Below the pieces are notes generated by a model that had not been told where the DNA came from, did no database searches, and worked only from the letters and a program-made list of their open reading frames with translations. 20,263 bases of DNA from a virus, in IMG/VR virus record IMGVR_UViG_3300035698_016605, positions 1-20,263 of that record. One strand, given 5' to 3'. Shown here in pieces: positions 259 through 19,828 of this stretch (position 1 is its first letter; each line of letters opens with the position of its first letter). A program made the position numbers and the translations under genes.

Positions 259-437
259 AAAAGAACACCAAGAAATTAGATAAAAGTATTTGTACTAAAT
301 GTGGTGCTAAAATTGCAATACTAGCAAAGTGTACAATCTCTTCTTGTTACCAATGTTCAAAATGCCATGCTAGATATATTAAAGAAAAAGCATGGGAGAT
401 GTATGATCAAAAGAAATTTGAATGGATTAAAGTTTAA
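255..437 (+). CDS. Small zinc-ribbon protein (60 aa)
   Basis: A basic 60-residue protein with two cysteine pairs arranged as a zinc ribbon: C13-x2-C16, then C34-x2-C37 (YQCSKCHARY), with extra Cys at 26 and 31. Small ribbons of this kind occur in phages as nucleic-acid-binding or protein-contact modules, but no specific function can be given. It has no own ribosome binding site; its ATG at 255 overlaps the TGA of the preceding frame, so it is probably translated by coupling. Its last codons overlap by 11 bases the end of the convergent nucleotidyltransferase gene. No terminator hairpin was found at this junction. Confidence 0.7.
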   Translation: MKKNTKKLDKSICTKCGAKIAILAKCTISSCYQCSKCHARYIKEKAWEMYDQKKFEWIKV

Positions 438-1341
438 TGTCTTTAACATCACTGTGAGAAAGTTTTCCATCTTCAATTAATTTCATTAAATCGTTAATAA
501 TCTTAAAATACATATACCGATCTATTAGTTTAAATTTAACATTAATTTCTTCAAATGACTTCTTGTCGTGTCTAGTTTTAACTGCATTATGTCTTAACTC
601 AATTAATTCTTTTTTCTGTGTAGCAGCTCGTTTAATATCAGTTTCAATTTCCTTTAGTTTGTTTTCAAGTCGATTTTTAAATGGTTCACGAAACCTTTCT
701 GGAACAGCCTGTAATGCAGCTTTTATAGTTTCATAATCAATAACATCTCGTTTTAATTCACCTAATTGTATGTCAAACACTCTTGCTAAACCATTAACTT
801 GTTTTAATAATCCTTTAAAGTAATCATATGGATCATACGATATTTTTTCCATCTTTGGACCAATTATCCAGGCATCTTGATCTACAATATAAAGCCCATC
901 TGAATAATAATCTTGCTTTGAATTTAACTGAATATAAAATTCTAATGGATGTTTATTGATAAAAATATCTTCTTTAGGCTCATAAGTCGTTAAAAAGTAT
1001 TTTTTAACAGCAACAACAAGATCTTCTTTATTTGTATATTTCCCGCTAGTTTTAAGGACATCATTTAATACATCTTGTTTTGGAACAATATGAACATCAA
1101 TATCACTTGTAGGTACAATTTGATTTGTACATATAGAACCAATAATTCTAATTTCATCAACAAGTTTATGAAGGTTAAAAAAGGGAAATTTAGCTATTAA
1201 ATAATGAATTCGGTCTTTAACCTCTTGTTTTAACTTAGGATGCTGTTTATCTGTTAAATCCCAAACATCCTTCGATAATGTAAACATAGGAAAATCTACA
1301 AGACTTTCAGAAAGGAAATATATATATTTATTAAATTTCAT
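427..1341 (-). CDS. Nucleotidyltransferase-fold protein, predicted head-packaged (304 aa)
   Basis: The polymerase-beta-type nucleotidyltransferase signature is visible: G68-S69, then D80-x-D82 in SDIDVHI, and a plausible third acidic residue E134 in PLEFYIQ. These residues normally bind two metal ions and transfer a nucleotide to a protein, RNA or small molecule; the substrate here is unknown. The C-terminal half (about 190-300) is charged and helical, possibly coiled coil. The N-terminus is MKFNKYIYFLSES: aromatic and basic with an L-x-E at 10-12, like a T4 capsid-targeting sequence cut by the prohead protease. By that reading (inference) the enzyme is packed in the head. There is no Shine-Dalgarno; a late-promoter motif ends only six bases before the ATG. 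The family call is fairly secure; packaging and substrate are not. Confidence 0.72.
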   Translation of the reverse strand: MKFNKYIYFLSESLVDFPMFTLSKDVWDLTDKQHPKLKQEVKDRIHYLIAKFPFFNLHKLVDEIRIIGSICTNQIVPTSDIDVHIVPKQDVLNDVLKTSGKYTNKEDLVVAVKKYFLTTYEPKEDIFINKHPLEFYIQLNSKQDYYSDGLYIVDQDAWIIGPKMEKISYDPYDYFKGLLKQVNGLARVFDIQLGELKRDVIDYETIKAALQAVPERFREPFKNRLENKLKEIETDIKRAATQKKELIELRHNAVKTRHDKKSFEEINVKFKLIDRYMYFKIINDLMKLIEDGKLSHSDVKDIKL

Positions 1342-1347
1342 GTATTT

Positions 1348-1357
1348 TAAATATTTA
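1348..1357 (-). promoter_or_regulatory. Late-promoter motif TAAATATTTA, nucleotidyltransferase gene
   Basis: Exact copy of the palindromic 10-mer that precedes most transcription units here. On the minus strand it is followed by AAATAC and then directly by the ATG at 1341, so a T4-like late start would fall at or next to the start codon, giving a leader of almost no length. The orientation is taken from the following A-rich bases and from the gene. Confidence 0.6.
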
Positions 1358-1373
1358 CCATAATTAATAGAGA

Positions 1374-3182
1374 TTACGAGTATATTTTTACAAATACATA
1401 ATTTCCACAGTCCCAGATTCTATCCCATCCATTGGCTTGCATGTTAGTAATTTCGGTTTTGTTTGGGTCAAAAACTTCTAATTTATCTTTCAAGATATTT
1501 TTGCGGAAATTAAACCTATGATACCGTTTTATACCTCGAAAATACCAATAACTAGGTTTACTATATTTTACAAATGTAAACCCTAATTTTTTATATAAAT
1601 TACCTTGGCTCCAGCGCCTATCGGCATAACTTATAATTTTCTTTGGTTTGTAGTTAATCTCAAAATGTTTTAAAAATTTACTAGCAATTCCAGGAAAATT
1701 AAAACTACTTATTGTACAATATCTTATTAATTCATAAGACCCAACTTCAGCATTTTGTCCTAATGCTTTTCTTAATTTACCAAAAGTCATAACTCCAATT
1801 AATCTGTTTTTATAGAATGCTCCTAAATGTATAGCACTTTTATCTTCTCCTTGAATATGATATTTATTAAGGAATTTATTCTTTAGTTTAACATTTATTG
1901 GTTTTATTTCACATTTTCTAGCACCAATAGAATAATTAACTAAACCTAGTATGTGCTTAATTCTTGACTTTACTATTTTTTCTTTAAATAACCATTCGTC
2001 TTCAAATATATGAATTAATTTAATATTTTTAGATTCACATAATATTGTTTTATTATACAAATTTAACTTATCTTTGTGCCGTTCAGAATGCCAATATATT
2101 CCATCATATTCTATAGCAACATTTTCACTTGGTAAAAATATATCGAGTTCTTTTATGCCATTTTTATATTTATGAAATTTATAATTTTCTTCTATCTTTT
2201 TTTGATATATAGTTTTTATATAGTCAACAACATTCTTCTCACCTTTTGATATATTTTTATCTCCAAAACAACCAGAACAAAATATATCTTGCCATTTACC
2301 ATCCGATAGGTCTTTATTAATAATACTATGACATTTATTACATTTAAGACTTAATTTGGTTTTATTTAATCCATCATAATTTTCATTATTAATAATTTGA
2401 AATCCTTGTTTATTTATATATTGTTTTATTTCTTTAAAATGGTGTTCTATTCTAGCTTTTGGTGCATAATGTAAATTTCCACACTTAATATTACAAGCTT
2501 TTTGATATCCTTTTACAAATGATATATAAAATCTTTTATTTATATTACAAAATTCACAAATTGGGATTTTTTTTAAATCGTTGTGTATAATATAAAATCT
2601 TTGGCTCCAATTAAAACTTTTATAATTAATTGGTATAAGATTTTTTGTTAATTGTAAAATTGAAATTAATATATCTTTATGATCTTGTATATGTTTATAA
2701 TTAATAAGTTGATGTTTTCTACCAAGATCAGTGTCATTTAATCTTTGTTTAATAAAATCTTTAATGATTAAAACATCTTTAGGTTTATAATTAAATTGTT
2801 TAATTTCATTAATAAATTTATCTAATATTTTTTTAAATTGTTTCTTTTTTGTACACGAACAAGAAGCCCATTTTAGTGTATTTTTTCTTATGCATAGATT
2901 ATTATTACAAGTTTTATAATATCCATATTTAAACATTTTAAAATTTAATTTTTTATTACAATTAGGACATCTAGGATATTCTTTTATGTCGTGTAAAATA
3001 CAATATATTCTTTCTGCCAGTAGGTTAGATTTGTTTAATTTTTTTACTATAAATTGACTATTTAAATTGATTTGCTTATATAAATTAGATTCTAAAAACC
3101 ATTGCTTATCTAAAACCCTAGAGTTTAGCGTTCCTATTTTTGTTAATAAAATTTTCTTAATTTCTGTTTTAATAGTATTCAC
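1374..3182 (-). CDS. Hef-like free-standing homing endonuclease (602 aa)
   Basis: The protein carries three CxxC-based zinc fingers (C72/C75/C92/C97; C209/C212/C230/C234; C281/C284/C302/C305), then a Vsr-like PD-(D/E)xK nuclease block at about 313-412 with KELDIF (D347), IEYDG (E358, D360) and YWH (W364, H365). A C-terminal domain (about 420-550) looks acyltransferase-like. This order matches the Hef-type mobile endonucleases first described in T4-related phages. The first two fingers share flanking sequence (RIYCILHDIKEYPRC versus RFYIIHNDLKKIPIC), so the N-terminal module is duplicated. The start is GTG at 3180-3182, preceded by a clear AAGGAGATATT. The gene sits between the nucleotidyltransferase and the sheath, in an insertion-like position. 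It appears intact, with no frameshift. Confidence 0.82.
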   Translation of the reverse strand: MNTIKTEIKKILLTKIGTLNSRVLDKQWFLESNLYKQINLNSQFIVKKLNKSNLLAERIYCILHDIKEYPRCPNCNKKLNFKMFKYGYYKTCNNNLCIRKNTLKWASCSCTKKKQFKKILDKFINEIKQFNYKPKDVLIIKDFIKQRLNDTDLGRKHQLINYKHIQDHKDILISILQLTKNLIPINYKSFNWSQRFYIIHNDLKKIPICEFCNINKRFYISFVKGYQKACNIKCGNLHYAPKARIEHHFKEIKQYINKQGFQIINNENYDGLNKTKLSLKCNKCHSIINKDLSDGKWQDIFCSGCFGDKNISKGEKNVVDYIKTIYQKKIEENYKFHKYKNGIKELDIFLPSENVAIEYDGIYWHSERHKDKLNLYNKTILCESKNIKLIHIFEDEWLFKEKIVKSRIKHILGLVNYSIGARKCEIKPINVKLKNKFLNKYHIQGEDKSAIHLGAFYKNRLIGVMTFGKLRKALGQNAEVGSYELIRYCTISSFNFPGIASKFLKHFEINYKPKKIISYADRRWSQGNLYKKLGFTFVKYSKPSYWYFRGIKRYHRFNFRKNILKDKLEVFDPNKTEITNMQANGWDRIWDCGNYVFVKIYS

Positions 3183-3218
3183 AATATCTCCTTAACTAAC
3201 TATTAGTGTGTGATGTTT

Positions 3219-3228
3219 TAAATAATTA
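3219..3228 (-). promoter_or_regulatory. Degenerate late-promoter motif before the endonuclease gene
   Basis: The minus strand reads TAATTATTTA followed by AAAC, one mismatch from the TAAATATTTA motif and about 36 bases upstream of the GTG start. It also contains the -10-like TATAAT. It could give the mobile gene its own late transcription. Such AT-rich near-matches also occur by chance, so confidence is low. Confidence 0.3.
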
Positions 3229-3243
3229 TATCAAAAATTAAAG

Positions 3244-3277
3244 TAAAAGCAAGAATTTTTGACTTTTCTTGCTTTTA
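3244..3277 (-). terminator. Hairpin after the tail sheath gene
   Basis: Perfect 12-bp inverted repeat: TAAAAGCAAGAA (3244-3255) and TTCTTGCTTTTA (3266-3277), with a 10-base loop. It starts six bases after the sheath stop codon, and on the minus strand it is followed by the T-rich stretch TTTAATTTTTG. It fits a rho-independent terminator, though the stem is AT-rich. Confidence 0.65.
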
Positions 3278-3282: not shown

Positions 3283-5973
3283 TTAACCACCAATTAATTC
3301 TTGGAAGTCTTGGTCGGTACGAGTTGCAATAAAGTTCACACGAATGAACTCAGCAGCCCTAACCGGTTTAAGATAAATATCTACTACAAGTTCATTATTA
3401 TCAATGACTTGTGGAGTATTATTCCTTTCGTCACAAACGATTAGATAATCATATACACCTTCATTATTTTTAGCAACTTCAAATAATGGTTTTAATGTAT
3501 TAATTACTCGTGTGCGTGTGAACACCGAATTGGGTTCAAACACAAAGTAACGCAATGCAGCCATAGTAGCTTTTTCCAAAGTAAGGAATAATCTACGCAC
3601 GTTAATTCTGTCAAATGCAGACTGTTTCTTCTGAAGTGTTTTCTGACCCCAGACAACATAACCATCGCCAGGGAAATAAACAATTGGATTAAGACCATTG
3701 CGATATAGAAGATCACGCTGCTTCTGATTTGGATTTATGGCCAAATCAACGATGTTTCGAATCACACCATTGTTTAGACCTGCCGGAGCAATCCAAGGGA
3801 AACGAGTACGATCAATATTTGTCATAATGTTATCCACGTTGCCGGACATTGGTAGCCATACATAAATATCTGCATTAGCATCATAAACCTTAGCCCAGTT
3901 TGCATAAGCACAAGCATAACTTGAATTTGAAGAACCAAGTAGATTCTTTAAAGGATTTAAAATATGCTGTGTAAAGTTCTTAGAAACATCACCAAGGGTT
4001 AAACTATTTGAACCTTGAACAAATACTTGACGTAATGGGTCAGCAATTAATATACAATCTTTTCGAGTACTTTCAGCAAATTGCTGAAGAACATTAAGCA
4101 TTGTCTTATAATCGTTAGCAAGTGTTGAACTTGAACCAGTTTCAGCATTCTGTAATTCAGTAATTCTTGTACTATTGACAGATAACGAATCATCATAACT
4201 GTCATAATATAAAGAAGCCGAAAGAGCACACGCATCTGTATTTCTGGTCGCAGCCCAAATAGTTGATAATCCAGCATCACAAACCACATCAATTGGTGTT
4301 TGTTCTGTGTTTTCAGCAAGAATTAAGGCACGTTCAACTTTACTTATAAGACTATTTTCACTAGCACCTGTAGCGACCCCAGTTGTTCCAGTGAAACAAC
4401 CAATTCGTTTTGAAGTGGTAATATCACTTGTCGCATATGTACCAGTGGCAACCGTAATGTCCCCATAAGTAAACTGGCCATAACCAGATAATAGAGGAAG
4501 TAAGGAAACATTAAATGACGATAATATATACGAACCAGCAGCACCAGAAAGTTCTCCAGTTAGAAGAACTGAATATGATGTGTCCGATTCAACATATGCC
4601 GTATAAGCATGGGAAACCGTGGAACTAAGTCCAAGGTCTACCGTATAACCGTCGCCCATATCCCATGCCCAAGCTGTTACCGGAAGACCCATCGTGGATC
4701 CAGAAAAGCTAATGGTTAAGGGTGAAGAGCCTGCGGAAAGATCCATATAAGTTGCTGTTTCTCCACCAGCATCCTCGTCGTCCTGTGGTGTAATATAAAC
4801 TGTCTGTAAATTATATGGATTCATACTGGAAAGATCATAAGATCCGGTTTCTGGCATACCAGCGGACGAAACCGTTGAGCTTTCCGTGAAAGCACGACTA
4901 TATATTCTTGCGACCTTATTTTTATCCTGCCAAGAACCACTTATCTTTGAAATGGCTGGATTAATAAGAAGCTTAACATATTGAGAGCTATTGTTTATCT
5001 TGTTTTCAAGATAAGCTGTTTGAGCTGAACCCCCATAACTAACTTCTGTTTTACTATAATCCAAAGAACCAGTATAAGTTTCTTGAAGAATAAAGCTTAA
5101 TTTTTGATCAGCATTATAAACACTCTTACGGAATTTAAATAACGTGAATAAAAGTGAATCGTCATATGAAGAATCACCAAAATCATAATTAGGAATATGT
5201 TCAATAGTTTCTGAGATACTTCCCTGATTAAACTGCGTTCCAGTTAAATTAAAAGATAGAGTTGCATTCGTTAAATTAACCCAGCTTGTGTCAGCAGTTG
5301 TCGGGCCAATTGAATTAGCTGTCTGAACATAATCAAAAACAGTACTATCCATTCTTGAGTTATCAGCAAAAGCAACATAATATCCTTCATAATACTGATT
5401 TATTGAGGTTTTTGCACTATTTAAAACAATCATACCTGCTTTGTAAGCGTCATCCATTGTGGAAATACCAGTAGCAGCATCAGCAATAGTAACTAAACCA
5501 GCAGTCCATGTTGAAGGCGTATCGCCAACATTACCAGCTAACCATTCAGTATATTGTGCTTGAGTTAAATCGACATGAACAGGTTGACCAAAATAATATG
5601 AAGAGCATCCATTTAGCAAGGTCTGTGAAGTAGCAGAAGCCGAAGGAACACCAAATACCGGATAAAGCAAGGCACTATAATCAGAGCCTAGACCAAGTCC
5701 TTCTCCATAAGGAATACGGCAAGTTAATAGGTTTCCATTAGCATTTAATACGTCTTTACAGGTATTATAAAAGTAACGTTCAGCTGTATTTGTTGGAGTG
5801 CTAAATATTCTTTCCTGTTCAGATATATTAGAAACATTAATTAATTCATATGCTGGGCCTTCATTTGCAAAACCAATTACTAGTGAATTTGTACCAGCAG
5901 GTAAAGTACTTACCTGTGAAAGATCCCGTTCATTAATTTCCACTCCTGGGGATTCAATTGTACGTGTTGCCAT
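3283..5973 (-). CDS. Tail sheath protein, gp18-like, with an inserted PKD-like domain (896 aa)
   Basis: This is the contractile sheath subunit that surrounds the tail tube and drives DNA delivery. The N-terminus (RTIESPGVEINERDLS) and the C-terminal domain (about 640-896: YFPGDGYVVWGQKTL, INVRRLFLTLEK, FEPNS, then AAEFIRVNFIA) are typical of T4-like phage sheaths. At 896 residues it is longer than T4 gp18 (about 660). Much of the surplus lies in the middle, where residues about 410-492 carry a PKD-like beta domain (WDMGDG at 437-442, SHAYT at 454-458). The region is Ser/Thr/Gly-rich and probably lies on the sheath surface. The start is well supported: AAAGGAGATATAAT precedes the ATG. A late-promoter motif lies 53 bases upstream and a terminator hairpin follows. 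Unlike in T4, it is on the strand opposite to the terminase and tube genes. Confidence 0.92.
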   Translation of the reverse strand: MATRTIESPGVEINERDLSQVSTLPAGTNSLVIGFANEGPAYELINVSNISEQERIFSTPTNTAERYFYNTCKDVLNANGNLLTCRIPYGEGLGLGSDYSALLYPVFGVPSASATSQTLLNGCSSYYFGQPVHVDLTQAQYTEWLAGNVGDTPSTWTAGLVTIADAATGISTMDDAYKAGMIVLNSAKTSINQYYEGYYVAFADNSRMDSTVFDYVQTANSIGPTTADTSWVNLTNATLSFNLTGTQFNQGSISETIEHIPNYDFGDSSYDDSLLFTLFKFRKSVYNADQKLSFILQETYTGSLDYSKTEVSYGGSAQTAYLENKINNSSQYVKLLINPAISKISGSWQDKNKVARIYSRAFTESSTVSSAGMPETGSYDLSSMNPYNLQTVYITPQDDEDAGGETATYMDLSAGSSPLTISFSGSTMGLPVTAWAWDMGDGYTVDLGLSSTVSHAYTAYVESDTSYSVLLTGELSGAAGSYILSSFNVSLLPLLSGYGQFTYGDITVATGTYATSDITTSKRIGCFTGTTGVATGASENSLISKVERALILAENTEQTPIDVVCDAGLSTIWAATRNTDACALSASLYYDSYDDSLSVNSTRITELQNAETGSSSTLANDYKTMLNVLQQFAESTRKDCILIADPLRQVFVQGSNSLTLGDVSKNFTQHILNPLKNLLGSSNSSYACAYANWAKVYDANADIYVWLPMSGNVDNIMTNIDRTRFPWIAPAGLNNGVIRNIVDLAINPNQKQRDLLYRNGLNPIVYFPGDGYVVWGQKTLQKKQSAFDRINVRRLFLTLEKATMAALRYFVFEPNSVFTRTRVINTLKPLFEVAKNNEGVYDYLIVCDERNNTPQVIDNNELVVDIYLKPVRAAEFIRVNFIATRTDQDFQELIGG
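4498..4746 (-). other. PKD-like domain inserted in the sheath
   Basis: Residues about 410-492 of the sheath. The PKD core WDMGDG is followed by VDLGLS, VSHAYT and an ESDTSYSVLL strand. The last PKD domain of the 419-aa protein at 8362 reads WDFGDG, ADAGLS, VSHTYT, with very similar spacing. The two look homologous; which one donated cannot be seen. Confidence 0.7.
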
Positions 5974-6026
5974 ATTATATCTCCTTTAAATACATTTCTT
6001 GTTCAGAAACTTACTTTTTATCTTTT

Positions 6027-6036
6027 TAAATATTTA
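6027..6036 (-). promoter_or_regulatory. Late-promoter motif, tail sheath gene
   Basis: Exact TAAATATTTA, read on the minus strand as GATAAATATTTAAAAAG. It contains the ATAAATA core of T4-like late promoters and lies 53 bases before the sheath start. It is back to back with the plus-strand copy at 6089. Confidence 0.65.
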
Positions 6037-6088: not shown

Positions 6089-6098
6089 TAAATATTTA
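6089..6098 (+). promoter_or_regulatory. Late-promoter motif, basic protein and terminase operon
   Basis: Exact TAAATATTTA followed by AAAACC, 19 bases before the ATG at 6118. Together with the minus-strand copy at 6027 it makes a divergent pair in the 144-base gap between sheath and terminase operons. Confidence 0.65.
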
Positions 6099-6117
6099 AA
6101 AACCATGTAACATTTAT

Positions 6118-6585
6118 ATGAATAACTTATTAAATAAATTTTATGCTTTATTAGAAGCAAATATTACAACTAAAAAACTAAACAACCCGTTAAAAGATTT
6201 TACGTCCAAAAAACAGCATTGGCAGAAAATGACCCGAGGGTTAGGAAAACGGAAAAATCTTGCTCAAATGGGTAAAAATAATAGATTATTTTTAAAAACA
6301 TCTTCTGTTCCAATGCCTAATCCAGTAAGAATGGCCAAATCAGTTGAGAAGGGTGTATGGAGAGTGTCTTTATTGGACGCTGTTAATATTGCTAAAAAAT
6401 ATAAAATGTATCTACCTAATGACGATAAACCATCTAAACATTTAAGTACTACAGGTATTATATTGTTTAGAAATGCAAAAGGACAATACTTTTTGCTGAA
6501 AAATCCATCATTTAGGAAAAAACCTAGACGAAAAGCTTTTTACCATAAGTCACCACCACTCTTTGGGCCTGGATTTAATCAATAA
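6118..6585 (+). CDS. Small basic protein upstream of the terminase (155 aa)
   Basis: Not recognised. It is strongly basic: Lys/Arg clusters occur at about 17-65 and again in FRKKPRRKAFYHK near the C-terminus, which would suit DNA binding. The N-terminus, MNNLLNKFYALLEA, matches the Phe/Tyr/Lys plus L-x-E pattern shared with other proteins of this window and resembles a capsid-targeting sequence; cleavage after E13 is predicted by analogy with T4. No Shine-Dalgarno is visible before the ATG; a late-promoter motif lies 19 bases upstream. It ends 20 bases before the large terminase gene, where T4 has the small terminase. It lacks an obvious long coiled coil, so a gp16 role is possible but unsupported. 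A basic internal head protein fits as well. Confidence 0.7.
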   Translation: MNNLLNKFYALLEANITTKKLNNPLKDFTSKKQHWQKMTRGLGKRKNLAQMGKNNRLFLKTSSVPMPNPVRMAKSVEKGVWRVSLLDAVNIAKKYKMYLPNDDKPSKHLSTTGIILFRNAKGQYFLLKNPSFRKKPRRKAFYHKSPPLFGPGFNQ

Positions 6586-8326: not shown

Positions 8327-8336
8327 TAAATATTTA
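8327..8336 (+). promoter_or_regulatory. Late-promoter motif, Ig/PKD protein gene
   Basis: Exact TAAATATTTA in the context GATAAATATTTAAAAAGG, 25 bases before the ATG at 8362. A strong AAGGAG ribosome binding site lies between the two. Confidence 0.7.
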
Positions 8337-8361
8337 AAAAGGACTTTAAGGAGAATATAAT

Positions 8362-9688: not shown

Positions 9689-9698
9689 TAAATATTTA
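9689..9698 (+). promoter_or_regulatory. Late-promoter motif, tail tube gene
   Basis: Exact TAAATATTTA followed by AAAAGG, 15 bases before the ATG at 9713. It stands just after the terminator, so the tube gene restarts transcription on its own. Confidence 0.7.
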
Positions 9699-9712
9699 AA
9701 AAGGATATTATT

Positions 9713-10348
9713 ATGGTCCTATCAAGAAGTGCTGAACTAGTTCAACAATCATTATTTAATAAAGCTTTAAAAGACAAGTTTTTACTTGTTTTAAATCTCC
9801 CAAAATGCCTTAAAGATTTACAAATAAATCGTTTAAGAGAAAGTGGGCTTATTAACCTAGATCAATTACAGTTTTCTATATTTAGTGCTCCTTCTCCAAC
9901 TATTACAATTAACCAGGTTCCATTAAACCAACAAGGTCAGGTCTATAATGTTACCTCCCAGAAGAGAGAAGCTTATACACCAATGAATGTCAACTTTACG
10001 ATAGATAATATGTATGGAAATTATTATGTTATATGGAAGTGGTTAGAGTATATTAATGATCCAAAGAACAGTGGAATGAATCCTTATTTTAAAGTACCTA
10101 GAACGGACACAAAAGTTGATACATACTTGGATTACCAAACAAATATAACAGTTTTTACCTTAGATGAATATCATAAGAAAGTTGCTAAATGGGATTATAC
10201 TAATTGCTTTCCAACTATGTTAACAGACATAAGCTATAATTATCGGATGCCTGATGAGGCTGAATGTTCATTTCAATTTATCTATTCACAATTATTTTTT
10301 GAACTATTAGACGATCCAAATACAACCTGTCCAATTTGTGAGGTTTAA
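9713..10348 (+). CDS. Tail tube protein, gp19-like (211 aa)
   Basis: This is the structural subunit that polymerises into the inner tail tube through which DNA passes. The sequence follows the T4-type tube pattern: an N-terminal helix with KFLLVLNLP, a beta section with SAPSPTITINQVPLNQQGQVYNV-type loop residues, then YTPMNVNFTID, a WKWLEYIND helix and closing strands ending in FQFIYSQLFFELL. It is longer than T4 gp19 (163 residues). AGGA precedes the ATG at the usual distance. It forms a single-gene unit: terminator and late promoter upstream, bidirectional terminator downstream. Confidence 0.88.
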   Translation: MVLSRSAELVQQSLFNKALKDKFLLVLNLPKCLKDLQINRLRESGLINLDQLQFSIFSAPSPTITINQVPLNQQGQVYNVTSQKREAYTPMNVNFTIDNMYGNYYVIWKWLEYINDPKNSGMNPYFKVPRTDTKVDTYLDYQTNITVFTLDEYHKKVAKWDYTNCFPTMLTDISYNYRMPDEAECSFQFIYSQLFFELLDDPNTTCPICEV

Positions 10349-10399: not shown

Positions 10400-11188
10400 T
10401 TACATTAAATTACCAGTTTTCAAAGCAGCCTTGTTTGACTTCCCTTGTAGTTTCTTGTAGGAAGCTCCAAGTTTCTTGGGAGGCGTTATATGCTGTTTAT
10501 TAATCTTAGCAGTACCACCAGTTTTTGATAAAGCAGCCTTATTGGACTTCCCTTGTAACTTTTTCCATTTACTTCCAGCAAGCTTAGGCGTGGGGTTGCT
10601 AACGGCTTCACCAACAGGTCCTTGATCTTCGGGGTTAACTTCAAGGTCTTCAACGTCACTCTCAAGCCCTTCTTCACCTTCTTCACCTTCTTCACCCTCT
10701 TCGTCACCACGTATATCAGCAACGATTTCAGCTAGACGATCAGCTATTTCCTGAAGAGCATCAGCAACATCAACTTCTTCATCGTCCTCTTCCCCGTCCA
10801 TATCTCCAGTGTCTTCTACAGGCGGAATGTCAACATCGTCTTTGTCCATACTCTGAAGAGCGGCGTCTGGATCGGTTTCAATACCTTCTTCTTCATTTAT
10901 AATAGAAGCCTTTGCCGAATTAAATAACTGATCAAATTTAGATTCATTAGCCATACCGTTTTTCTCCTTTATACCCTTCGATTCTTTTTGTAATTTTTCT
11001 TTTCCAGTACTGATTGTTGCATCAACTTCATCTGGTTTATTTAGTTTAACATTTTTCATTGCATCTTGAGAAGTTTCCGGTTTTCCAGTTTTTTCTAGCT
11101 CAGAAGGTTTTTCATTCTTTTCCGTAAAAATTTGTTTCTCATAAATTTCTGAAATATCAAATGCTTCATCTATAATTTTGTTTTCCAT
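10400..11188 (-). CDS. Acidic protein with C-terminal repeats, prohead-core-like (262 aa)
   Basis: Not a firm family match. The N-terminus MENKIIDEAFDISEIYE holds I-x-E sites at 6-8 and 12-14, compatible with prohead-protease processing. Residues about 97-190 are extremely acidic, with an E-E-G microrepeat at 163-174. The C-terminus turns basic and carries two copies of a 20-residue repeat (205-224 and 241-259) sharing KKLQGKSNKAAL. An acidic body with a short N-terminal (L/I)xE peptide recalls T4 prohead-core and internal proteins, which fill the procapsid and are cut during maturation. The start has AAAAAGGAACAAAACT before the ATG and a late-promoter motif 16 bases upstream. The neighbouring acidic gene at 11217 is probably functionally related. 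Confidence 0.7.
   Translation of the reverse strand: MENKIIDEAFDISEIYEKQIFTEKNEKPSELEKTGKPETSQDAMKNVKLNKPDEVDATISTGKEKLQKESKGIKEKNGMANESKFDQLFNSAKASIINEEEGIETDPDAALQSMDKDDVDIPPVEDTGDMDGEEDDEEVDVADALQEIADRLAEIVADIRGDEEGEEGEEGEEGLESDVEDLEVNPEDQGPVGEAVSNPTPKLAGSKWKKLQGKSNKAALSKTGGTAKINKQHITPPKKLGASYKKLQGKSNKAALKTGNLM
10668..10694 (-). repeat. 9-bp microrepeat coding E-E-G
   Basis: Three perfect tandem copies of CCTTCTTCA (plus-strand reading), followed by a degenerate fourth. They code the Glu-Glu-Gly run of the acidic protein. Such repeats can expand or contract by slippage. Confidence 0.85.
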
Positions 11189-11203
11189 AGTTTTGTTCCT
11201 TTT

Positions 11204-11213
11204 TAAATATTTA
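11204..11213 (-). promoter_or_regulatory. Late-promoter motif, acidic repeat protein gene
   Basis: Exact TAAATATTTA, read on the minus strand as GGTAAATATTTAAAAAGGA, 15 bases before the ATG at 11188. The A-run merges with the AGGA ribosome binding site. Confidence 0.65.
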
Positions 11214-11216: not shown

Positions 11217-11915
11217 TTAAATGCACATTTCTGTTAGATATATTTCTGTTCCTAAAGGTTTGACGGATTCATCTAGTTTATCGTCTTTAGCTTCGTCTGC
11301 ATCATCCTTTTCGTCCTGAGAATCTTCTTTTTCTTTCTTTTCATCTTTCTCATCCGATTCTTTCTTTGCTTCAGAAGGCTTATCCGGTTCTTTTTCTTTA
11401 GGCCCTTTATCTCTAGAAGTATCAGGTTTAGTACCCTTTCCTTTTCGCGGTTTTAAATCTTCAATTGTTTGAGTTAAGTTTTGAATTTCCATATTAACTG
11501 CGTCTAGTTGACTAATGGCTGAATCCCGGTTCGGTACATCGCCTGACTTTGTAGCATCAAAAATTGTTTTTTCTAGCTGCTTTTTTTCTTTTTCACTTAT
11601 GGTAAGTATTTCCATGGCAGTTTGAAGAGCAAATTTTTGTTTAATTTGGTCTTTCTTTTGATCTATGCTAGATAGAGTTTTATCAATTTCCTGCATATCT
11701 AAATCTGGTAAAGTATTTGAAATATCTTCTGGATTTATACCATCGCTCCCTGCCAAGGGGTTTTCCAGAGTTTCGGGTATGTCACGAGCCAATGCATCCG
11801 AGTCTAATCCTGCTGGGCGACCAAGAATTTCCTCGTCCGGATCGTACTGATCTTCATTATCATCCCTATCCGAAGAATCTTCCATTAACTGACGACACAT
11901 TTTATCAAATTTCAT
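11217..11915 (-). CDS. Highly charged acidic protein, prohead-core-like (232 aa)
   Basis: Not recognised by family. From the chosen start the N-terminus is MKFDKMCRQLMED, with L-x-E at 10-12, the same pattern as in the other putative head-targeted proteins. An acidic stretch follows, then a helical segment (about 75-150) with heptad-like spacing that may be coiled coil, then a mixed K/E/D low-complexity region (about 155-215). An in-frame ATG four codons upstream is unlikely to be the start: the sequence ATGGAGAATATT places a GGAG ribosome binding site exactly there, seven bases before the ATG at 11915. A late-promoter motif lies just upstream. With the adjacent acidic gene it may supply the scaffold or core of the prohead. 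Confidence 0.7.
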   Translation of the reverse strand: MKFDKMCRQLMEDSSDRDDNEDQYDPDEEILGRPAGLDSDALARDIPETLENPLAGSDGINPEDISNTLPDLDMQEIDKTLSSIDQKKDQIKQKFALQTAMEILTISEKEKKQLEKTIFDATKSGDVPNRDSAISQLDAVNMEIQNLTQTIEDLKPRKGKGTKPDTSRDKGPKEKEPDKPSEAKKESDEKDEKKEKEDSQDEKDDADEAKDDKLDESVKPLGTEIYLTEMCI

Positions 11916-11939
11916 AATATTCTCCATATAACATCTTTT

Positions 11940-11949
11940 TAAATATTTA
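11940..11949 (-). promoter_or_regulatory. Late-promoter motif, second acidic protein gene
   Basis: Exact TAAATATTTA, minus-strand context GGTAAATATTTAAAAAGA, nearly identical to the copy at 11204. It lies 24 bases before the start at 11915. Confidence 0.65.
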
Positions 11950-12314: not shown

Positions 12315-12872
12315 TTAATCTTCCATTAAGTTTTGAAATCTAATACCATAATCTATAGCTCTTGGAGATGTATTTTTATATCCCTTTGGACCCCCATTCC
12401 ATATCATACCTATTTGTTTAAAACTAAAATTTTTGTTTTTTGTATAATGTTGTAAGTACTTTTTACACATGTCAGTTGCTTTGGCCAAGTCATGAGCATC
12501 TTCATGTGTATAATTAGTGTGATATACTCGATTTACATCAGCAACAATTCCATTATGCATTTGTAATGGACCATATGCAGTATATATACCAGTTTTTGCG
12601 TTTCTATCACCAAAGTATTTTCCATTAATCTTCCTTGCTGTAGAGGACTCTAAAGCTTCTATAGCCCAAACAACTTTATTCCAATCAATATTTTCTATTA
12701 TTTTAGATTGAACAGTGTTTGGGGGTGTTCTGTGAGTAGGTGCCCCGTATGAAGAAAGACCTGATAAACCAATTAATCCAGCAGCAGCGACATTTTGAAC
12801 AGTAGATTTAATATCCTCTTTAATTAGGACACATTCAATGGATTTGTAAAAAACTTTATTAAATTTATTCAT
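12315..12872 (-). CDS. Lysozyme-like lytic transglycosylase, possibly head-packaged (185 aa)
   Basis: Residues about 63-180 have the SLT/lysozyme pattern: the likely catalytic glutamate E75 in ALESS, then YGPLQM (100-105), which matches the conserved G-x-x-Q motif, and WNGGP (158-162), the usual N-x-G-P motif. Such enzymes cut the glycan strands of peptidoglycan. The N-terminus MNKFNKVFYKSIECVLIKED resembles the shared head-targeting pattern, with a clear I-x-E only at 17-19 and S-I-E earlier, so that link is weaker. Residues about 26-42 are Ala/Gly/Leu-rich and hydrophobic. If packed in the head it would act at entry; otherwise it could be a lysis enzyme. No Shine-Dalgarno precedes it; its ATG overlaps the TGA of the 33-aa gene, implying coupling. 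Confidence 0.78.
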   Translation of the reverse strand: MNKFNKVFYKSIECVLIKEDIKSTVQNVAAAGLIGLSGLSSYGAPTHRTPPNTVQSKIIENIDWNKVVWAIEALESSTARKINGKYFGDRNAKTGIYTAYGPLQMHNGIVADVNRVYHTNYTHEDAHDLAKATDMCKKYLQHYTKNKNFSFKQIGMIWNGGPKGYKNTSPRAIDYGIRFQNLMED

Positions 12873-12970
12873 TTGTTAAATATTTTTGTTATACTATTAT
12901 AAAGTTTACGTATTTTTGATATTCTCTTTCTAGGTCTATGAACATAAACTATTCGAGAATATTCACTCAT
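12869..12970 (-). CDS. 33-aa basic protein, coupled to the transglycosylase
   Basis: A short frame starting MSEYSRIVYVHRPRKR and ending ITKIFNK, strongly basic, function unknown. Support comes from arrangement: its TGA overlaps the transglycosylase start as ATGA, the transglycosylase has no ribosome binding site of its own, and the late-promoter motif lies two bases before this ATG, with TGA and TAA in frame just upstream. It may act as a leader peptide that loads ribosomes for the downstream gene. With no Shine-Dalgarno, translation would have to be leaderless. Confidence 0.5.
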   Translation of the reverse strand: MSEYSRIVYVHRPRKRISKIRKLYNSITKIFNK

Positions 12971-12972
12971 TT

Positions 12973-12982
12973 TAAATATTTA
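12973..12982 (-). promoter_or_regulatory. Late-promoter motif of the transglycosylase operon
   Basis: Exact TAAATATTTA, minus-strand context GATAAATATTTAAAATG, ending two bases before the ATG of the 33-aa gene. A 9/10 copy at 12877-12886, just before the transglycosylase start, may be a second weaker site. Confidence 0.6.
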
Positions 12983-12996: not shown

Positions 12997-13006
12997 TAAA
13001 TACTTA
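12997..13006 (+). promoter_or_regulatory. Variant late-promoter motif TAAATACTTA
   Basis: Nine of ten bases match the motif, followed by AAAGGAG and the ATG at 13021. It is divergent from the minus-strand copy at 12973, with 14 bases between them. Confidence 0.5.
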
Positions 13007-13020
13007 AAAGGAGAATAATT

Positions 13021-13233
13021 ATGAGTTTAATACATGTTGATGAAACAGTTGAAAATCGCCCAATACCTTGTAGTTTTTGTGGAGCAACAGCAATGGGCAG
13101 AGAATGTGAAAATTATGATAGGTTTACAGGGGATATTGTAACGGAATGTACTTGGTCATGTGGACGTTGTGGACGAGTCTTTAAACGGGGTGTGGTTTCC
13201 ATTAAAAAGAGTTCAGAAAAACCTAATGAATAA
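13021..13233 (+). CDS. Small zinc-ribbon protein (70 aa)
   Basis: Two cysteine pairs, C17-x2-C20 (PCSFCGA) and C47-x2-C50 (SCGRCGRVF), with further Cys at 29 and 43, define a small zinc ribbon of unknown role. The C-terminal tail is Lys/Ser-rich. GGAG precedes the ATG at the usual distance. The last codons overlap the start of the next gene (ATG at 13226), so the two are translationally coupled. Confidence 0.75.
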   Translation: MSLIHVDETVENRPIPCSFCGATAMGRECENYDRFTGDIVTECTWSCGRCGRVFKRGVVSIKKSSEKPNE

Positions 13234-13642
13234 ATTCTCTAAATTGTTTGAAACAAAACTAGGTGGTTGGGCAAATAAAACTGCTGGTACTCAAGTTACA
13301 GGAACTAAAACTGCTACTAACCAAACAGGCTCAAAACCACCTCGCAATCAAGTGAAAATTGCTCCAACCCCTGACCTTAATGCTTTAATTAATTCTGTTG
13401 AGGATGATATAACAAAAGCACCTAAAATTCTTCCATTTCCTTTAGATACCATTACAGATGAGTTGATATATGCTTATGGAAGATTACAAGGAGTTGAAAG
13501 TTTACTAACTCAATGTCTTGAAAATAATGAAATGTTTATTGCTCAAAGAAAAGAACTAATACAAAGCTTAAAACAAAAAGCCACTAAAGCCCGATTACTG
13601 GTTGATGAAATTTATCAGAAATTAGGTAAACTTACCCTTTAA
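13226..13642 (+). CDS. 138-aa protein with putative head-targeting N-terminus
   Basis: Not recognised. I chose the ATG at 13226, which overlaps the end of the preceding gene. An in-frame ATG at 13160 would add 22 residues lying wholly inside that gene and has no supporting ribosome binding site. The chosen N-terminus MNKFSKLFETKLGG matches the shared pattern, with L-x-E at 7-9. A Thr/Asn/Gly/Pro-rich linker (about 15-45) follows, then an acidic patch and a helical C-terminal half (about 70-135) that looks coiled-coil-like. The build suits a small structural or internal virion protein; nothing more can be said. Confidence 0.68.
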   Translation: MNKFSKLFETKLGGWANKTAGTQVTGTKTATNQTGSKPPRNQVKIAPTPDLNALINSVEDDITKAPKILPFPLDTITDELIYAYGRLQGVESLLTQCLENNEMFIAQRKELIQSLKQKATKARLLVDEIYQKLGKLTL

Positions 13643-14208: not shown

Positions 14209-14397
14209 ATGGACATTATTAAAATTAAAACTAGTAAAATTTTTGACAAAAAAACTTCAAAACCTATTCTCGAAATTGGGCTTAGAGTTGAAATTGAAAA
14301 GCTTTTAAGTCTTAAACAGAGTAATGGTGTTAAGGCTGTTAATGAGATTTTAAGTGGATTAATGAAGCAAATCAAAGCTGAATGTAATTGTGCTTAA
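14209..14397 (+). CDS. Small hypothetical protein (62 aa)
   Basis: Not recognised. It is a Lys/Ile-rich, probably alpha-helical protein ending CNCA. AAAGGAAATT gives a good ribosome binding site, overlapping the preceding stop, so it is in an operon with the membrane protein. Its TAA at 14395-14397 overlaps the stop of the convergent neck gene. No terminator was seen at this junction. Confidence 0.65.
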   Translation: MDIIKIKTSKIFDKKTSKPILEIGLRVEIEKLLSLKQSNGVKAVNEILSGLMKQIKAECNCA

Positions 14398-15239
14398 GAT
14401 CCAGGTCTACCATAACCACCGTATACAGAATCATTACGGCATTTTCCGTCGCCAGGATCTGAATATTTAAATAGCTTATCAGATTCGACTTCAATACTGT
14501 TATCATAAATCTTTTCAGGGCTAGCTGGTAACGTACCACCAGATAGCTTTCCAAAGAATGACGGATCGGATGGTTGCATATTTCCTTCTTCTGGATCCAA
14601 ACCAGATTCGTAACTGAAGTCGAATCTTTTACATTTAATAATCCAGACATAATGGCCAAGCAAGGAATTAGCATAAGCAATATTTTCATCTCGACGTTCA
14701 GTGACTTCATACAATGGACCACCACGGGTCCAAGCTTCCCAGGCAGGGTGACTTCCTGAAATATAAGAATCACTTTCTGTTTTGATTCCTGAGGGTGGAT
14801 AAGTCCATTCAGCCCCACTCTTTGCTCCAGGTCTATCCCATCCATACTCAGTTAGTCTAATAATATCACCCGCTTGCGGTTCTCTCCAAGATCCAGAGAA
14901 GTAAGGACTTACACTTGCATCCATAGCTTGAAAAGTTTCTCTAAAGCCTGAAATATGAATAATGCATGTTAAATCAGCATCACTTTGAATACCAAATTTT
15001 GAAAGTAATATAGAGTCGTTGTTAAGGTCACATAGAACAATCATTTCGGCTGAAGGTGTAAAAACGTGCGTAGGGTCCTCACCATATATTAAGTCCATAC
15101 CAGAAAGAGACATAGTGTTTATATAATATGCACAAGCTGTTCCATATTGACCAATGTATTCGTACCACCAGTCAGAAACTAAATGACGCTCATTTGCGTT
15201 ATTATCTTTACGGAGATATCTAAGAGATTCTACAGTCAT
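14394..15239 (-). CDS. Neck protein, gp14-like (281 aa)
   Basis: In T4, gp13 and gp14 form the neck that seals the filled head and receives the tail. Several blocks match the gp14 pattern: the N-terminal YG-x3-YY section, DLIYGED (as in T4 DLIFGED), LLSKFGIQ followed by LTCII, the P-x-A/E-GDII/L motif (EPQAGDIIRL), a YEVTE strand and a KCKRFDFSYESG strand. It is slightly longer than T4 gp14 (256), mainly through the segment around 120-160. It starts two bases after the stop of the 1528-aa gene and has no clear Shine-Dalgarno, so it is probably translated by reinitiation in one operon with it. The N-terminus lacks the (L/I)xE targeting pattern, as expected for a neck protein. Confidence 0.78.
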   Translation of the reverse strand: MTVESLRYLRKDNNANERHLVSDWWYEYIGQYGTACAYYINTMSLSGMDLIYGEDPTHVFTPSAEMIVLCDLNNDSILLSKFGIQSDADLTCIIHISGFRETFQAMDASVSPYFSGSWREPQAGDIIRLTEYGWDRPGAKSGAEWTYPPSGIKTESDSYISGSHPAWEAWTRGGPLYEVTERRDENIAYANSLLGHYVWIIKCKRFDFSYESGLDPEEGNMQPSDPSFFGKLSGGTLPASPEKIYDNSIEVESDKLFKYSDPGDGKCRNDSVYGGYGRPGS

Positions 15240-15241
15240 AA

Positions 15242-18200
15242 TTATTCAGTTAATAAATTGTTTATTGCTATATCAAAATAACACTTCTGTTCTTTAAGAG
15301 TTTCTGTTATTTTTAAAACTTCTGAATTAATAAATTTTTGAATTTCTTCATTTTCTTCTTGCATCTTTTTAAGTTTTTCACTTATGTTTGACTTGGTAAA
15401 TAATTGGTGAAAGCTTGCAAATATTTTAACTTGATTACCTTTATCTTTTATATTTGTTTTAATAACTTGGTTAAAGTCGGAAACATATTTACTATATAAA
15501 GTTTGCATCTCAACTGAGGGTGGCGTTTTTGTCGTATAATACTTTTTGATAAACTCAACATCTATTTGGTTTAAATTATAAGCAAATTGTTTATAAAGCA
15601 AATATAAATTCTTAACTATATTTTTTCGGTCCGCTAAAGGCAGAGTTTTAATTGATTCTAAAACTTGGTTAATTAAATCAACTCGAGCTATTGCAATTGA
15701 GCTATAATAATCTCGAATACTTCTTATTTTGTTAAAATGAGTTCTTTGAATTTTCTTTGATTCTATTTCTTCAGGAGTAAGACCAATATATTCAGATACC
15801 TCTTCAGTTTTCTTTTCTGCTTTATTGCTAATGCGTTTTAATAAAAAGGCAGCATCAGTATTTGTTAACTGGTTTAGTTCATTATTAATTGGAGCAAATA
15901 TCTCATCATTATATGTTTTTTTACTTTTAATATAAGTAAGCATATCTTTAAAGTTATCATAATATTGTGTAAGAAAATTATTACGAATTAAAACAACTAT
16001 CTTTTTTTCGTTATCAGTTAAGTTTAATGTGTTAATTCTAGGTAGGATACCCTTTTTTAAAACAGAATCCTCATTATCTTTTTCAAATGGAATAAGGACT
16101 TCAAATAATAGATCTTCAAATGTTTCTTTATCTTTAATATTAAGTTGATTATATTGGTCTTTATACTCATCCTTAATATCATTAATTGTTACTTGTTTAT
16201 TAAATTCAAATAAAGAATTAATAAAGTTATCTATCCTTGAAACTTTCTTATTTAAAGCAAATGAAAATACATCATTTATTAAAGTTTCGTTAAATTTACT
16301 TTTGATAGAAATAATTTCTTTTCCAGCCTTATCGGTTTTAATATCAAAAATATAGTTAAAAACATCCTTTAACTGCTGGTCTTCACTGTTTAACCAATTG
16401 TTTTTAAAGTATAACATATTGCTGGTATTAGTAAAAAACTCACTTTCCATTTTTTCTATTTTGGAAACATTAACATTATTAAGTAAATATTTCTTCAACT
16501 CTTGAACTGAATTTTTATTTTCTGCACTTATGTTTTCTTGGATGTCTTTTCCTTCGTCTTGTAATATTTTATTTTGTAAGAATGTTAACTCTGAGTCGTT
16601 TAATGATTGTATCCATTGTAAAATGTTTTTTGACTTTACTTTGTCAAAAACAGAAAGATCTAAAGTTCTAATATAAGTCTTAACAATATCTTTAAACGTA
16701 TCTCCCATTTTTTCATACTGGTTTAAAATCTCCATTGTTTTTCTAGAAGAAATTGATGCTGGTTTTTGATAAGAATAGTTTTTAAAAAATTCCTTTTCTT
16801 TTTTTGTTAACGTTGTATTAATCGCTTTAATTCGTTCTTGATGAGTTTGATATGTTAATAAATCATCATTTGACAGGTCAATGTTCCTAGTTTTAAAAGT
16901 ACCATCAATAGTTGGATTAAAAGCTTCCATTTGTTTAACTTTATAGTCTGGACATGGATAATCTGCTTTATGCTCTAAAACTGGTAGGGTTTTTGCAGGA
17001 TTATTTGGATCTTGTTTTCTTACAGTTCCCCATAAAATAATTGAAAGATCCTTTCTCTGTTGCGGTGTTGGTTCCCAATAATTAATGTCGGTCTTATACA
17101 CCACATTTTCCCTTGGAAAACTGATAAAATTCTCTTTGTCAGATTCAGAAATCTCGTATCCATAAGATTTAATGTTTTTAGCGTCACCGGCAGTGTCTTC
17201 AAATACAACAACAGTTTTTCGTTTAGCCCCAAACTTCCCAGGCCAACCCATTGTGGCAGGTTTGTATATGTGTATACATTTAATTTCTTTTTCAACAACA
17301 GGTGATTGACTTATATTAAAAACTTGAATTTGAGTAACATAAATAGGATATGTTTTGTCTAACTCTCCTCGACTCTGTAAGAATTCTTTTTCAAGTTCAG
17401 GTATTTCCCCAAGTTTTTGAAACTTTTCTGGTGAGCTATCAGCAACCCTAGGATAATATTTCTTTAACTCTAAAACCTTAGCTGTTATATTAAAAAACAT
17501 GTCTTGATTGCTTTTTAATCTTAATATCCTACTAGATTTATCGCCTTTTGAAACAAATGTTGAATATAAATTGTTATCTTTATCTACTAACATAATATAA
17601 TCTTTTCCATACTTAACAGGCAGCATAAAAGATTCTGATCCCGTTTTTCCAATATCTTTCGTGGTTCCACTAGTCAAATACTTTAATTGGAGTGGTCGAG
17701 AAGGCAAAGAGGTTATTGTGTTTCCGCTTATTCCATTAATAGCCGGAATTTCAATATTAGATTTTTTAGGATCTCCGTATATAATGTTGTCATTTGCTTC
17801 ATATTTAAAATTAGAAGGAATGTTATTATTTTTATATTTCAAAAATACGTTATTAAAAATCTCTTGTTGCTCTAAAATATTTGAAAGTTTTTTAACATAA
17901 TCAGTGTAAAACTTGTAAGCAACATAAGAAGATGCCATTAAATTCATGTTTACATAATCTAAATTTTTCTCCCAAAGTGTCAGATCACCCTTTTCTTCCA
18001 TCTTTTTTCTAGGTCTAACATTTATTTTAAACTTGTCTCCATTAGATTTACATAGTTGAAAACTCTTATATAAATTGTTGTAATAGTCATTATATGCCAT
18101 TTTGCCTAAATTTACATCATTAACCCAGGTTTTTAAATTTTTAAGCTTACCTAAAGTTTCATCTTCATTAATATCATTGGATTCCTTCATGTATCCTGTG

Positions 18201-19828
18201 GTTTTAGACGCATGGGGCATGTTCTTTACAAGTGGGATTACGGCCCCTGTTTTGTATTCGTGTCTAGAATCAAATGACTTTGCAATAACTCCAGTCCCAG
18301 CTTTAAAGGCTTGAATCTCTTCAGGAGATAAAGAATAATCAAAGTTCATTAATCCTAAGTCAACACGTTCGGGCATTTTGTCAAGAAATTTATATATTTT
18401 TTCAGCATGGTTAACTTCGTCTGAAGTTGGACCCTGTACACCAGGTTTAGGGTTAATATATAGATTATAATATAAATCAAAGGCTAATGAGGCTGTATCT
18501 ACCGGACGTTCCTGCATAGCTCTTCGGGCTTGTTCTTTTTCTTTTCCAAGAGCTCGTAAAGTCTGTCCACTCTTTGAAGTAGCTAAAGTAACATTTTCTT
18601 GAGGATCAAAAATAGTTTTTTCTGATATTAAATTGTTTATAATATAACTAAATGTTCTCTTATTGTTATAAGATTCTTCTTTAGTGTTAATACCTGTGGG
18701 ATTTCCTTCTGTATTATCTTTCGTATTGCCAGTTTTTAATGCCCCATACGCCTTATTAAGACCCTGGGTTAAAGAGTTGTTTATTGATTTAACCTCTGTA
18801 TCATTTACTTGAGGATATCCGTAAAATCCACCATAATCTAACCCAGAAATAGCCTTCTTGCTTATAAATCCTAAAACTTTATCAGCATCAAAATCAGAAC
18901 CTAATTCCTTAGAAGATTTTGAAAAGGTCTCATTAACAGTGTGAACAACACAAGCTAAATATTTTTTTAAATCAACGTCTAGTTTCTCTGTAATTCCAAG
19001 ATTTTTAGAAGATCCAGCCTCCCCAGGTGGCCCAATAATTTTGTTTTTAAATAATAAGAATAAAATATAAGTAGCCCAGATTCTTATAAAGTTTAAACCG
19101 CTCTTGTGAATCTTAGCATCTTGTACTAAGTTTTCATTAATTAACCTTTCGGTCTCTTTAATAAAATCTGAAGCCCTAAAATAATCACTCCTTTCTAAAA
19201 ATGTCTTGATCCCTTTAATAATGTCATTAATAGACTCTGGAGATACTAACCATTTATTAAAAAATTCAGGTACTTGAACACCTAATGAAACTACCCCATC
19301 CCCTTTGGAAACTAAAATAGAATTTAATAAACTATCAAGAGTTATCTCTTCCCCCATAGGCTTTACAAAACACTTAGCATCTGAATTAATTACTCTTTGT
19401 TTAAAGTCTGCAGCATCTTGATCATTATTTAAAAAATACTGAACAGAATCTATGTCTTTTTCAAAAATATCCTTTTCTTTTGAAATTATAGGACTTTTAG
19501 ACTTTTTGCCTATATGTGAAGGTGGAGCCTCAGGGACCTTAGTTAAATCTAAATCGGTGGACATAGATGGAATAGGCTCTTCCGTTGTTTGATTATTTTG
19601 CTTTTCAAGATTCTTGAAAACCTTTTCCATTTTTGAGGGTTTGGCTTTTCTACTAATTTCTCTGTTTATTAAATCTCTTTCTGATAGCTTTTTGCTACCC
19701 TCAAAAAGAAAATCATTGACTTTATTGCTAAAAAAACGATTTGTTTTGCTATTAGGGGTTAAACCCTCTTTTGATTCCTTTTTTGATAAAGCTTCGGATA
19801 TATTCTTTAAAAAAATATTATTTAACAT
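15242..19828 (-). CDS. Giant protein of unknown function, predicted head-internal (1528 aa)
   Basis: The largest gene of the window, and I do not recognise its family. It is Lys/Asn/Glu-rich, without transmembrane segments, obvious enzymatic motifs or repeats. Residues about 730-900 look like a beta-rich globular section (SFMLPVKYGKDYIMLVDKD and following). Residues about 1050-1528 look largely helical, with coiled-coil character near the C-terminus. The N-terminus MLNNIFLKNISEA has I-x-E at 10-12, and further L-x-E sites lie at 41-43 and 48-50, which suits prohead-protease processing of an internal or ejected protein. AAGGA lies ten bases before the ATG, and a late-promoter motif 34 bases upstream. 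The neck gene follows in the same operon. A baseplate or tail component is an alternative. Confidence 0.75.
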   Translation of the reverse strand: MLNNIFLKNISEALSKKESKEGLTPNSKTNRFFSNKVNDFLFEGSKKLSERDLINREISRKAKPSKMEKVFKNLEKQNNQTTEEPIPSMSTDLDLTKVPEAPPSHIGKKSKSPIISKEKDIFEKDIDSVQYFLNNDQDAADFKQRVINSDAKCFVKPMGEEITLDSLLNSILVSKGDGVVSLGVQVPEFFNKWLVSPESINDIIKGIKTFLERSDYFRASDFIKETERLINENLVQDAKIHKSGLNFIRIWATYILFLLFKNKIIGPPGEAGSSKNLGITEKLDVDLKKYLACVVHTVNETFSKSSKELGSDFDADKVLGFISKKAISGLDYGGFYGYPQVNDTEVKSINNSLTQGLNKAYGALKTGNTKDNTEGNPTGINTKEESYNNKRTFSYIINNLISEKTIFDPQENVTLATSKSGQTLRALGKEKEQARRAMQERPVDTASLAFDLYYNLYINPKPGVQGPTSDEVNHAEKIYKFLDKMPERVDLGLMNFDYSLSPEEIQAFKAGTGVIAKSFDSRHEYKTGAVIPLVKNMPHASKTTGYMKESNDINEDETLGKLKNLKTWVNDVNLGKMAYNDYYNNLYKSFQLCKSNGDKFKINVRPRKKMEEKGDLTLWEKNLDYVNMNLMASSYVAYKFYTDYVKKLSNILEQQEIFNNVFLKYKNNNIPSNFKYEANDNIIYGDPKKSNIEIPAINGISGNTITSLPSRPLQLKYLTSGTTKDIGKTGSESFMLPVKYGKDYIMLVDKDNNLYSTFVSKGDKSSRILRLKSNQDMFFNITAKVLELKKYYPRVADSSPEKFQKLGEIPELEKEFLQSRGELDKTYPIYVTQIQVFNISQSPVVEKEIKCIHIYKPATMGWPGKFGAKRKTVVVFEDTAGDAKNIKSYGYEISESDKENFISFPRENVVYKTDINYWEPTPQQRKDLSIILWGTVRKQDPNNPAKTLPVLEHKADYPCPDYKVKQMEAFNPTIDGTFKTRNIDLSNDDLLTYQTHQERIKAINTTLTKKEKEFFKNYSYQKPASISSRKTMEILNQYEKMGDTFKDIVKTYIRTLDLSVFDKVKSKNILQWIQSLNDSELTFLQNKILQDEGKDIQENISAENKNSVQELKKYLLNNVNVSKIEKMESEFFTNTSNMLYFKNNWLNSEDQQLKDVFNYIFDIKTDKAGKEIISIKSKFNETLINDVFSFALNKKVSRIDNFINSLFEFNKQVTINDIKDEYKDQYNQLNIKDKETFEDLLFEVLIPFEKDNEDSVLKKGILPRINTLNLTDNEKKIVVLIRNNFLTQYYDNFKDMLTYIKSKKTYNDEIFAPINNELNQLTNTDAAFLLKRISNKAEKKTEEVSEYIGLTPEEIESKKIQRTHFNKIRSIRDYYSSIAIARVDLINQVLESIKTLPLADRKNIVKNLYLLYKQFAYNLNQIDVEFIKKYYTTKTPPSVEMQTLYSKYVSDFNQVIKTNIKDKGNQVKIFASFHQLFTKSNISEKLKKMQEENEEIQKFINSEVLKITETLKEQKCYFDIAINNLLTE

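What the first reader, a model, noticed from the sequence alone, without database searches (positions are those of the whole stretch)
427..19828. Shared N-terminal head-targeting signature on otherwise unrelated proteins
Seen: MKFNKYIYFLSE (427-1341), MNNLLNKFYALLE (6118), MENKIIDE...ISE (10400), MKFDKMCRQLME (11217), MNKFSKLFE (13226), MLNNIFLKNISE (15242) and, weaker, MNKFNKVFYKSIE (12315). All are short, rich in F/Y/K/N, and most reach (L/I)xE within 9-14 residues. Sheath, terminase, tube, neck and endonuclease lack it. Known: T4 internal proteins and Alt carry N-terminal capsid-targeting sequences cut by the gp21 protease after (L/I)xE. Inference: this phage packs a set of effectors, including a nucleotidyltransferase and a giant protein, through one signal.
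Basis: partly seen in the sequence, partly recalled or inferred. Interest (0 to 1): 0.78.

Follow-up and report, generated by a model that had tools for sequence, protein, structure and literature searches.

The report
Capsid-targeting leaders in T4-like phage
Several unrelated proteins of this uncultured T4-like phage, including a nucleotidyltransferase and a 1528-residue protein, begin with short peptides that look like the removable tag T4 uses to load proteins into its head, so the phage probably carries them in its head and may deliver them with its DNA.

Summary
Six of the seven listed proteins have (L/I)xE with E at residue 8-14. Against external null N-termini, five leaders hold up individually: NTase, p6118 and p13226 (T4-IP-like, "F class"), giant and p10400 (a second class, "Y", core (L/I)xEAY). 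p11217 is weak and the 12315 protein fails the motif.

Uncultured relatives show the pattern genome-wide. In one 229-kb relative, 35 N-termini carry (L/I)xE against 15 expected, 18 tagged bodies share no homology, and 12 replication/nucleotide-metabolism genes carry none. Seven relatives encode a gp21-family protease; the window is a 20-kb fragment without one. T4 (ipII, ipIII, gp24) and phiKZ behave as positive and negative controls.

New support: T4-late-promoter-like elements (7 against 0.02 expected) precede the tagged and structural genes. NTase and p6118 match the two halves of one protein in relatives.

Several tagged families look like conserved head/neck proteins rather than effectors. 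Packaging, cleavage and injection are inferred, not shown. The principle is known from T4; the second leader class, the breadth of cargo and the promoter link appear undescribed in the papers I could search.

The parts
1306..1341 (-). F-class leader MKFNKYIYFLSE of the Pol-beta NTase (gene 427-1341)
   Evidence: Profile P=0.013; Y6, F9, L10, E12 match the T4 IPIII register 4/7/8/10 counted from E; AF2: helix 3-14 with low pLDDT, better-modelled core from about residue 20.
427..1341 (-). Pol-beta superfamily nucleotidyltransferase, 304 aa
   Evidence: GS...DxD invariant among 11 homologs; weak Pfam Polbeta/NTP_transf_2 matches below cut-off; homologs with leader in L155, L158, L159, L005, L006; without in L160-L162, L183, L184 and G003.
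6118..6156 (+). F-class leader MNNLLNKFYALLE of p6118 (gene 6118-6585)
   Evidence: P=0.007; family F4 nearly invariant and (L/I)xE kept in most homologs at shifting positions 13-15.
6118..6585 (+). p6118: homolog of a small tagged protein encoded just upstream of the gp14-like neck gene in relatives, and of the C-terminal domain of the L005/L006 NTase fusion
   Evidence: Alignment score 61 against shuffles 34.4+-5.0, 0 of 500; family alignments.
11147..11188 (-). Y-class leader MENKIIDEAFDISE(IY) of the acidic protein p10400 (gene 10400-11188)
   Evidence: Class-Y P=0.016; relatives' counterparts keep a related core (DI..VYE) but not always (L/I)xE.
11880..11915 (-). possible leader MKFDKMCRQLME of the acidic protein p11217 (gene 11217-11915)
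   Evidence: (L/I)xE at E12 but profile P=0.21; the L001 homolog has D in place of E.
12834..12872 (-). MNKFNKVFYKSIE of the 185-aa protein 12315-12872: weak, no (L/I)xE before residue 19
   Evidence: P=0.18 with class F, 0.024 with class Y for the site at 19.
13226..13252 (+). F-class leader MNKFSKLFE of p13226 (gene 13226-13642)
   Evidence: P=0.007; homologs keep [LI]xED about 7-14 residues from the start in 7 of 8.
19793..19828 (-). Y-class leader MLNNIFLKNISE(AL) of the giant protein (gene 15242-19828)
   Evidence: Scores above all null N-termini with the class-Y profile; sits directly upstream of the neck gene, where most relatives carry a tagged protein.
15242..19828 (-). giant orphan protein, 1528 aa
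   Evidence: No homolog in viral contigs or phages at the sensitivity used, no PHROG or Pfam family.
1345..1357 (-). late-promoter-like TAAATATTTAAAA before the NTase
6089..6101 (+). late-promoter-like element before p6118
6024..6036 (-). late-promoter-like element before the sheath
8327..8339 (+). late-promoter-like element before the Ig/PKD protein 8362
9689..9701 (+). late-promoter-like element before the tube
11201..11213 (-). late-promoter-like element before p10400
11937..11949 (-). late-promoter-like element before p11217
12970..12982 (-). late-promoter-like element about 100 nt before the 12315 protein gene
12997..13009 (+). variant element (TAAATACTTAAAA) before p13021, the gene overlapping p13226
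19860..19872 (-). late-promoter-like element (TAAATATTTATAA) before the giant gene

Best explanation
The leaders are capsid-targeting propeptides of the T4 type. Shown: short N-terminal peptides of two classes, unrelated bodies, late-promoter-like elements upstream, and a gp21-family protease gene in relatives. Inferred: during late infection the amphipathic leader binds the scaffold core of the prohead and carries the protein inside. The gp21-type protease then cuts after the E of (L/I)xE, releases the mature protein, and the head is filled with DNA. Accessory cargo (NTase, giant protein and, in relatives, peptidases and other enzymes) stays with the DNA and may be injected, as T4 Alt and IPI are. 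Small conserved tagged proteins (p6118, p13226, p10400) are more likely head-assembly or head-maturation proteins than effectors.
For: N-terminal (L/I)xE, observed against expected: G001 35/15.2, G003 19/7.4, G005 15/6.4; the test recovers T4 ipII, ipIII and gp24 and finds no excess in phiKZ. Eighteen tagged G001 bodies have no detectable mutual homology. Replication genes 0 of 12; T4/KVP40-homologous genes 13/136 against 80/493 for other genes. Genes with TAAATA at -20..-2: 46/150 tagged against 56/527 others, P=1.9e-8; internal offsets give 4-14 of 150. PF03420 protease in 7 of 12 relatives, E about 1e-36; gp55 late sigma homolog in G001. Window late-promoter-like 15-mer 7 against 0.02 expected. 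NTase and p6118, each with its own leader in the window, match the two halves of one protein in L005/L006. NTase family with and without leader. IPIII CTS: residues 4 and 7 target, 8 and 10 govern processing (PMC9026906).
Against: No virion proteomics. The window has no protease, scaffold or major capsid gene. G006 shows no enrichment (6 against 5.0) and G004 a modest one (17 against 9.3). Two of six leader-bearing NTase homologs have HLE/VLE in place of (L/I)xE, and several p6118 homologs have lost (L/I)xE while keeping F4. The p10400 counterparts keep a related core but not always (L/I)xE. The gp23 of these relatives has no obvious counterpart of the T4 FLTE site. p11217 and the 12315 protein are weak.
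Confidence: 0.7

Rival explanations
1. The leaders are permanent docking helices: late head/neck proteins use an N-terminal F...F or (L/I)xEAY helix to bind portal, neck or scaffold, and are not cut. (L/I)xE is a by-product of an amphipathic helix.
For: F4 is nearly invariant in the p6118 family while (L/I)xE is lost in some members. The p10400 counterparts keep the Y-class core but vary at E. The tagged p6118-family gene lies next to the gp14-like neck gene.
Against: (L/I)xE persists at shifting distances (residues 13-15) from the start in most p6118 homologs and about 7-14 in 7 of 8 p13226 homologs, which fits a cut site better than fixed helix geometry. Leaders of the same classes sit on predicted enzymes of unrelated families.
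Confidence: 0.2
2. Chance and composition: AT-rich genes give K/N/F/I-rich N-termini, and a short motif appears by luck.
For: p11217 and the 12315 protein are not separable from null N-termini. The class-F profile alone puts only 3 of 18 window proteins above the 95% null (P=0.058). G006 shows no enrichment.
Against: Lineage-wide enrichment against internal positions of the same proteins, negative phiKZ control, and linkage to promoter-proximal TAAATA.
Confidence: 0.08

Closest known systems
T4 capsid targeting sequence (CTS) of internal proteins IPI-IPIII, and the Alt propeptide
   Same: N-terminal position within 10-19 residues, hydrophobic/aromatic positions, (L/I)xE site for gp21, unrelated mature bodies, gp21-family protease in the relatives.
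   Different: Different spacing in most leaders (F...F...LLE), an additional (L/I)xEAY class, more candidates per genome (18 hand-listed in G001), and cargo that includes NTase, cytidylyltransferase-like, M15 peptidase-like and zinc-protease-like proteins and a 1528-aa orphan.
Polyvalent proteins packaged by phages (PMC5512222)
   Same: Pol-beta NTases and peptidases proposed as capsid-delivered effectors.
   Different: Those are large multidomain proteins; here mostly separate proteins each carry a short leader.
Propeptides of SPN3US/phiKZ-type head and ejection proteins
   Same: A prohead protease removes propeptides of packaged proteins (PMC10052503, PMC7411985 abstracts).
   Different: Different cleavage motif (my own knowledge); phiKZ shows no N-terminal (L/I)xE excess here.

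Membership tests
T4-type capsid targeting sequence | short N-terminal position of the peptide (about 10-19 residues) | tested here: met
T4-type capsid targeting sequence | (L/I)xE cleavage motif near the start | tested here: met
   6 of 7 listed proteins; not met for the 12315 protein
T4-type capsid targeting sequence | IPIII register: targeting residues at 4 and 7, processing at 8 and 10 | tested here: inconclusive
   Counted from E, met in the window only by NTase; exact also in several G001/G005 proteins; other window leaders use other spacings
T4-type capsid targeting sequence | gp21-family (Peptidase_S77) protease encoded by the phage | tested here: inconclusive
   Present in 7 of 12 relatives; the window is a 20-kb fragment without it
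T4-type capsid targeting sequence | shared by proteins with unrelated mature bodies | tested here: met
   18 tagged G001 proteins
T4-type capsid targeting sequence | protein found inside the head with its N-terminus trimmed | not testable with these tools
   needs virion mass spectrometry
T4 late regulon | TATAAATA-like element at -13..-6 of the transcription start | tested here: inconclusive
   TAAATATTTAAAA elements far above chance and gp55 homolog in a relative; exact TATAAATA is not enriched in the window and no transcript ends are known
Pol-beta superfamily nucleotidyltransferase (427-1341) | G-S ... D-x-D catalytic motif | tested here: met
   G68 S69 D80 D82 invariant in 11 homologs
Pol-beta superfamily nucleotidyltransferase (427-1341) | NTase palm fold similar to solved structures | tested here: inconclusive
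   Best PDB matches are MNT antitoxin, CdnD and aminoglycoside adenylyltransferases, but E is 0.05 or worse; strong matches only to phage proteins, mostly uncharacterized

The most novel reading that the evidence does not exclude
This T4-like lineage has a second, undescribed capsid-entry code, the Y-class leader (core (L/I)xEAY), running beside the T4 IP-type leader, and loads a larger and more varied enzyme cargo than T4, expressed from late promoters placed so that transcripts of many tagged genes in relatives would begin at the start codon.
Probability: 0.35. Interest if true: 0.72.

Novelty: new variant of a known kind. Interest (0 to 1): 0.52.

Why it matters
If right, a short readable leader makes the head cargo of uncultured T4-like phages predictable from sequence. 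It would turn many 'hypothetical' late proteins into testable candidates for packaged and injected proteins, such as NTases, peptidases and a 1528-aa orphan.

Tried and rejected
Close relatives of the giant and of p10400 in viral contigs by single-sequence patterns: none. Giant in the phage collection: none. Exact TATAAATA and CTAAATA counts in the window are at chance; the longer element is not. The strict T4 register (E-6/E-3 hydrophobic) is only mildly enriched in relatives, so the leaders cannot be described by the IPIII register alone. Recent DNA-level cassette shuffling of Y-class leaders was considered and not favoured: codons differ between leaders in G001. The p6118 fold gave no informative match. 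Paper searches for CTS in cyanophages or T4-like phages beyond T4 found no survey of this kind.

Full report
What the window is. The window is a complete 20,263-base IMG/VR record, a fragment of a T4-like myophage: large terminase (6606-8276), sheath (3283-5973), tube (9713-10348) and a gp14-like neck/Hc2 protein (14394-15239), by Pfam and PHROGs (the tube and neck Pfam matches are below cut-off). The terminase is under 60% identical to every record in the annotated phage collection but finds 38 uncultured relatives, one on a 229,717-base contig (G001). I fetched the contigs G001, G003, G004, G005 and G006 in full and called genes with a simple caller of my own; its start choices are predictions.

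Noticed in passing
relatives G001, G003, G004, G005, G006 (L046-L082): TAAATA lies exactly 4-6 nt before the start codon of 114 called genes (38/102 tagged, 76/575 untagged; background about 0.2-1 per position). With T4 late-promoter spacing the transcript would start at or next to the start codon, so leaderless late mRNAs are predicted. Not seen in T4, KVP40 or S-WAM1; a hint in RHph_I1_18.
   Followed up: partly
window 12869-12970 (-): A 33-codon ORF, read by eye, begins at the end of the 12970-12982 promoter-like element (gap 6, so predicted leaderless) and ends overlapping the start of the 12315 protein.
   Followed up: no
window 1374-3182 (-): The 'endonuclease' has a C-terminal match to the Mom family (PF25680, E=1.1e-7) and a weak REase_MTES_1575 match; GC is about 20-27%, no late-promoter element upstream, no homolog in the loci searched.
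   Followed up: partly
T4 NC_000866 18966-19130: T4 gp61.1, a hypothetical protein encoded beside the primase gene, starts MKTFKEFIKED, a near-perfect CTS.
   Followed up: no
Methylophilales phage Melnitz MZ577097, 82-1131, 12203-13288, 13281-14528, 14914-16866: A cultured phage with several F-class leaders, one of them on a RimK-like ATP-grasp protein; a convenient bench system.
   Followed up: no
L005:6270-7466, L006:2606-3802, L158:1637-2800, L159:3001-4164, L183:2308-3351, L184:2305-3351: Recurrent fusion of a Pol-beta NTase with the p6118-type domain, suggesting a shared function.
   Followed up: partly
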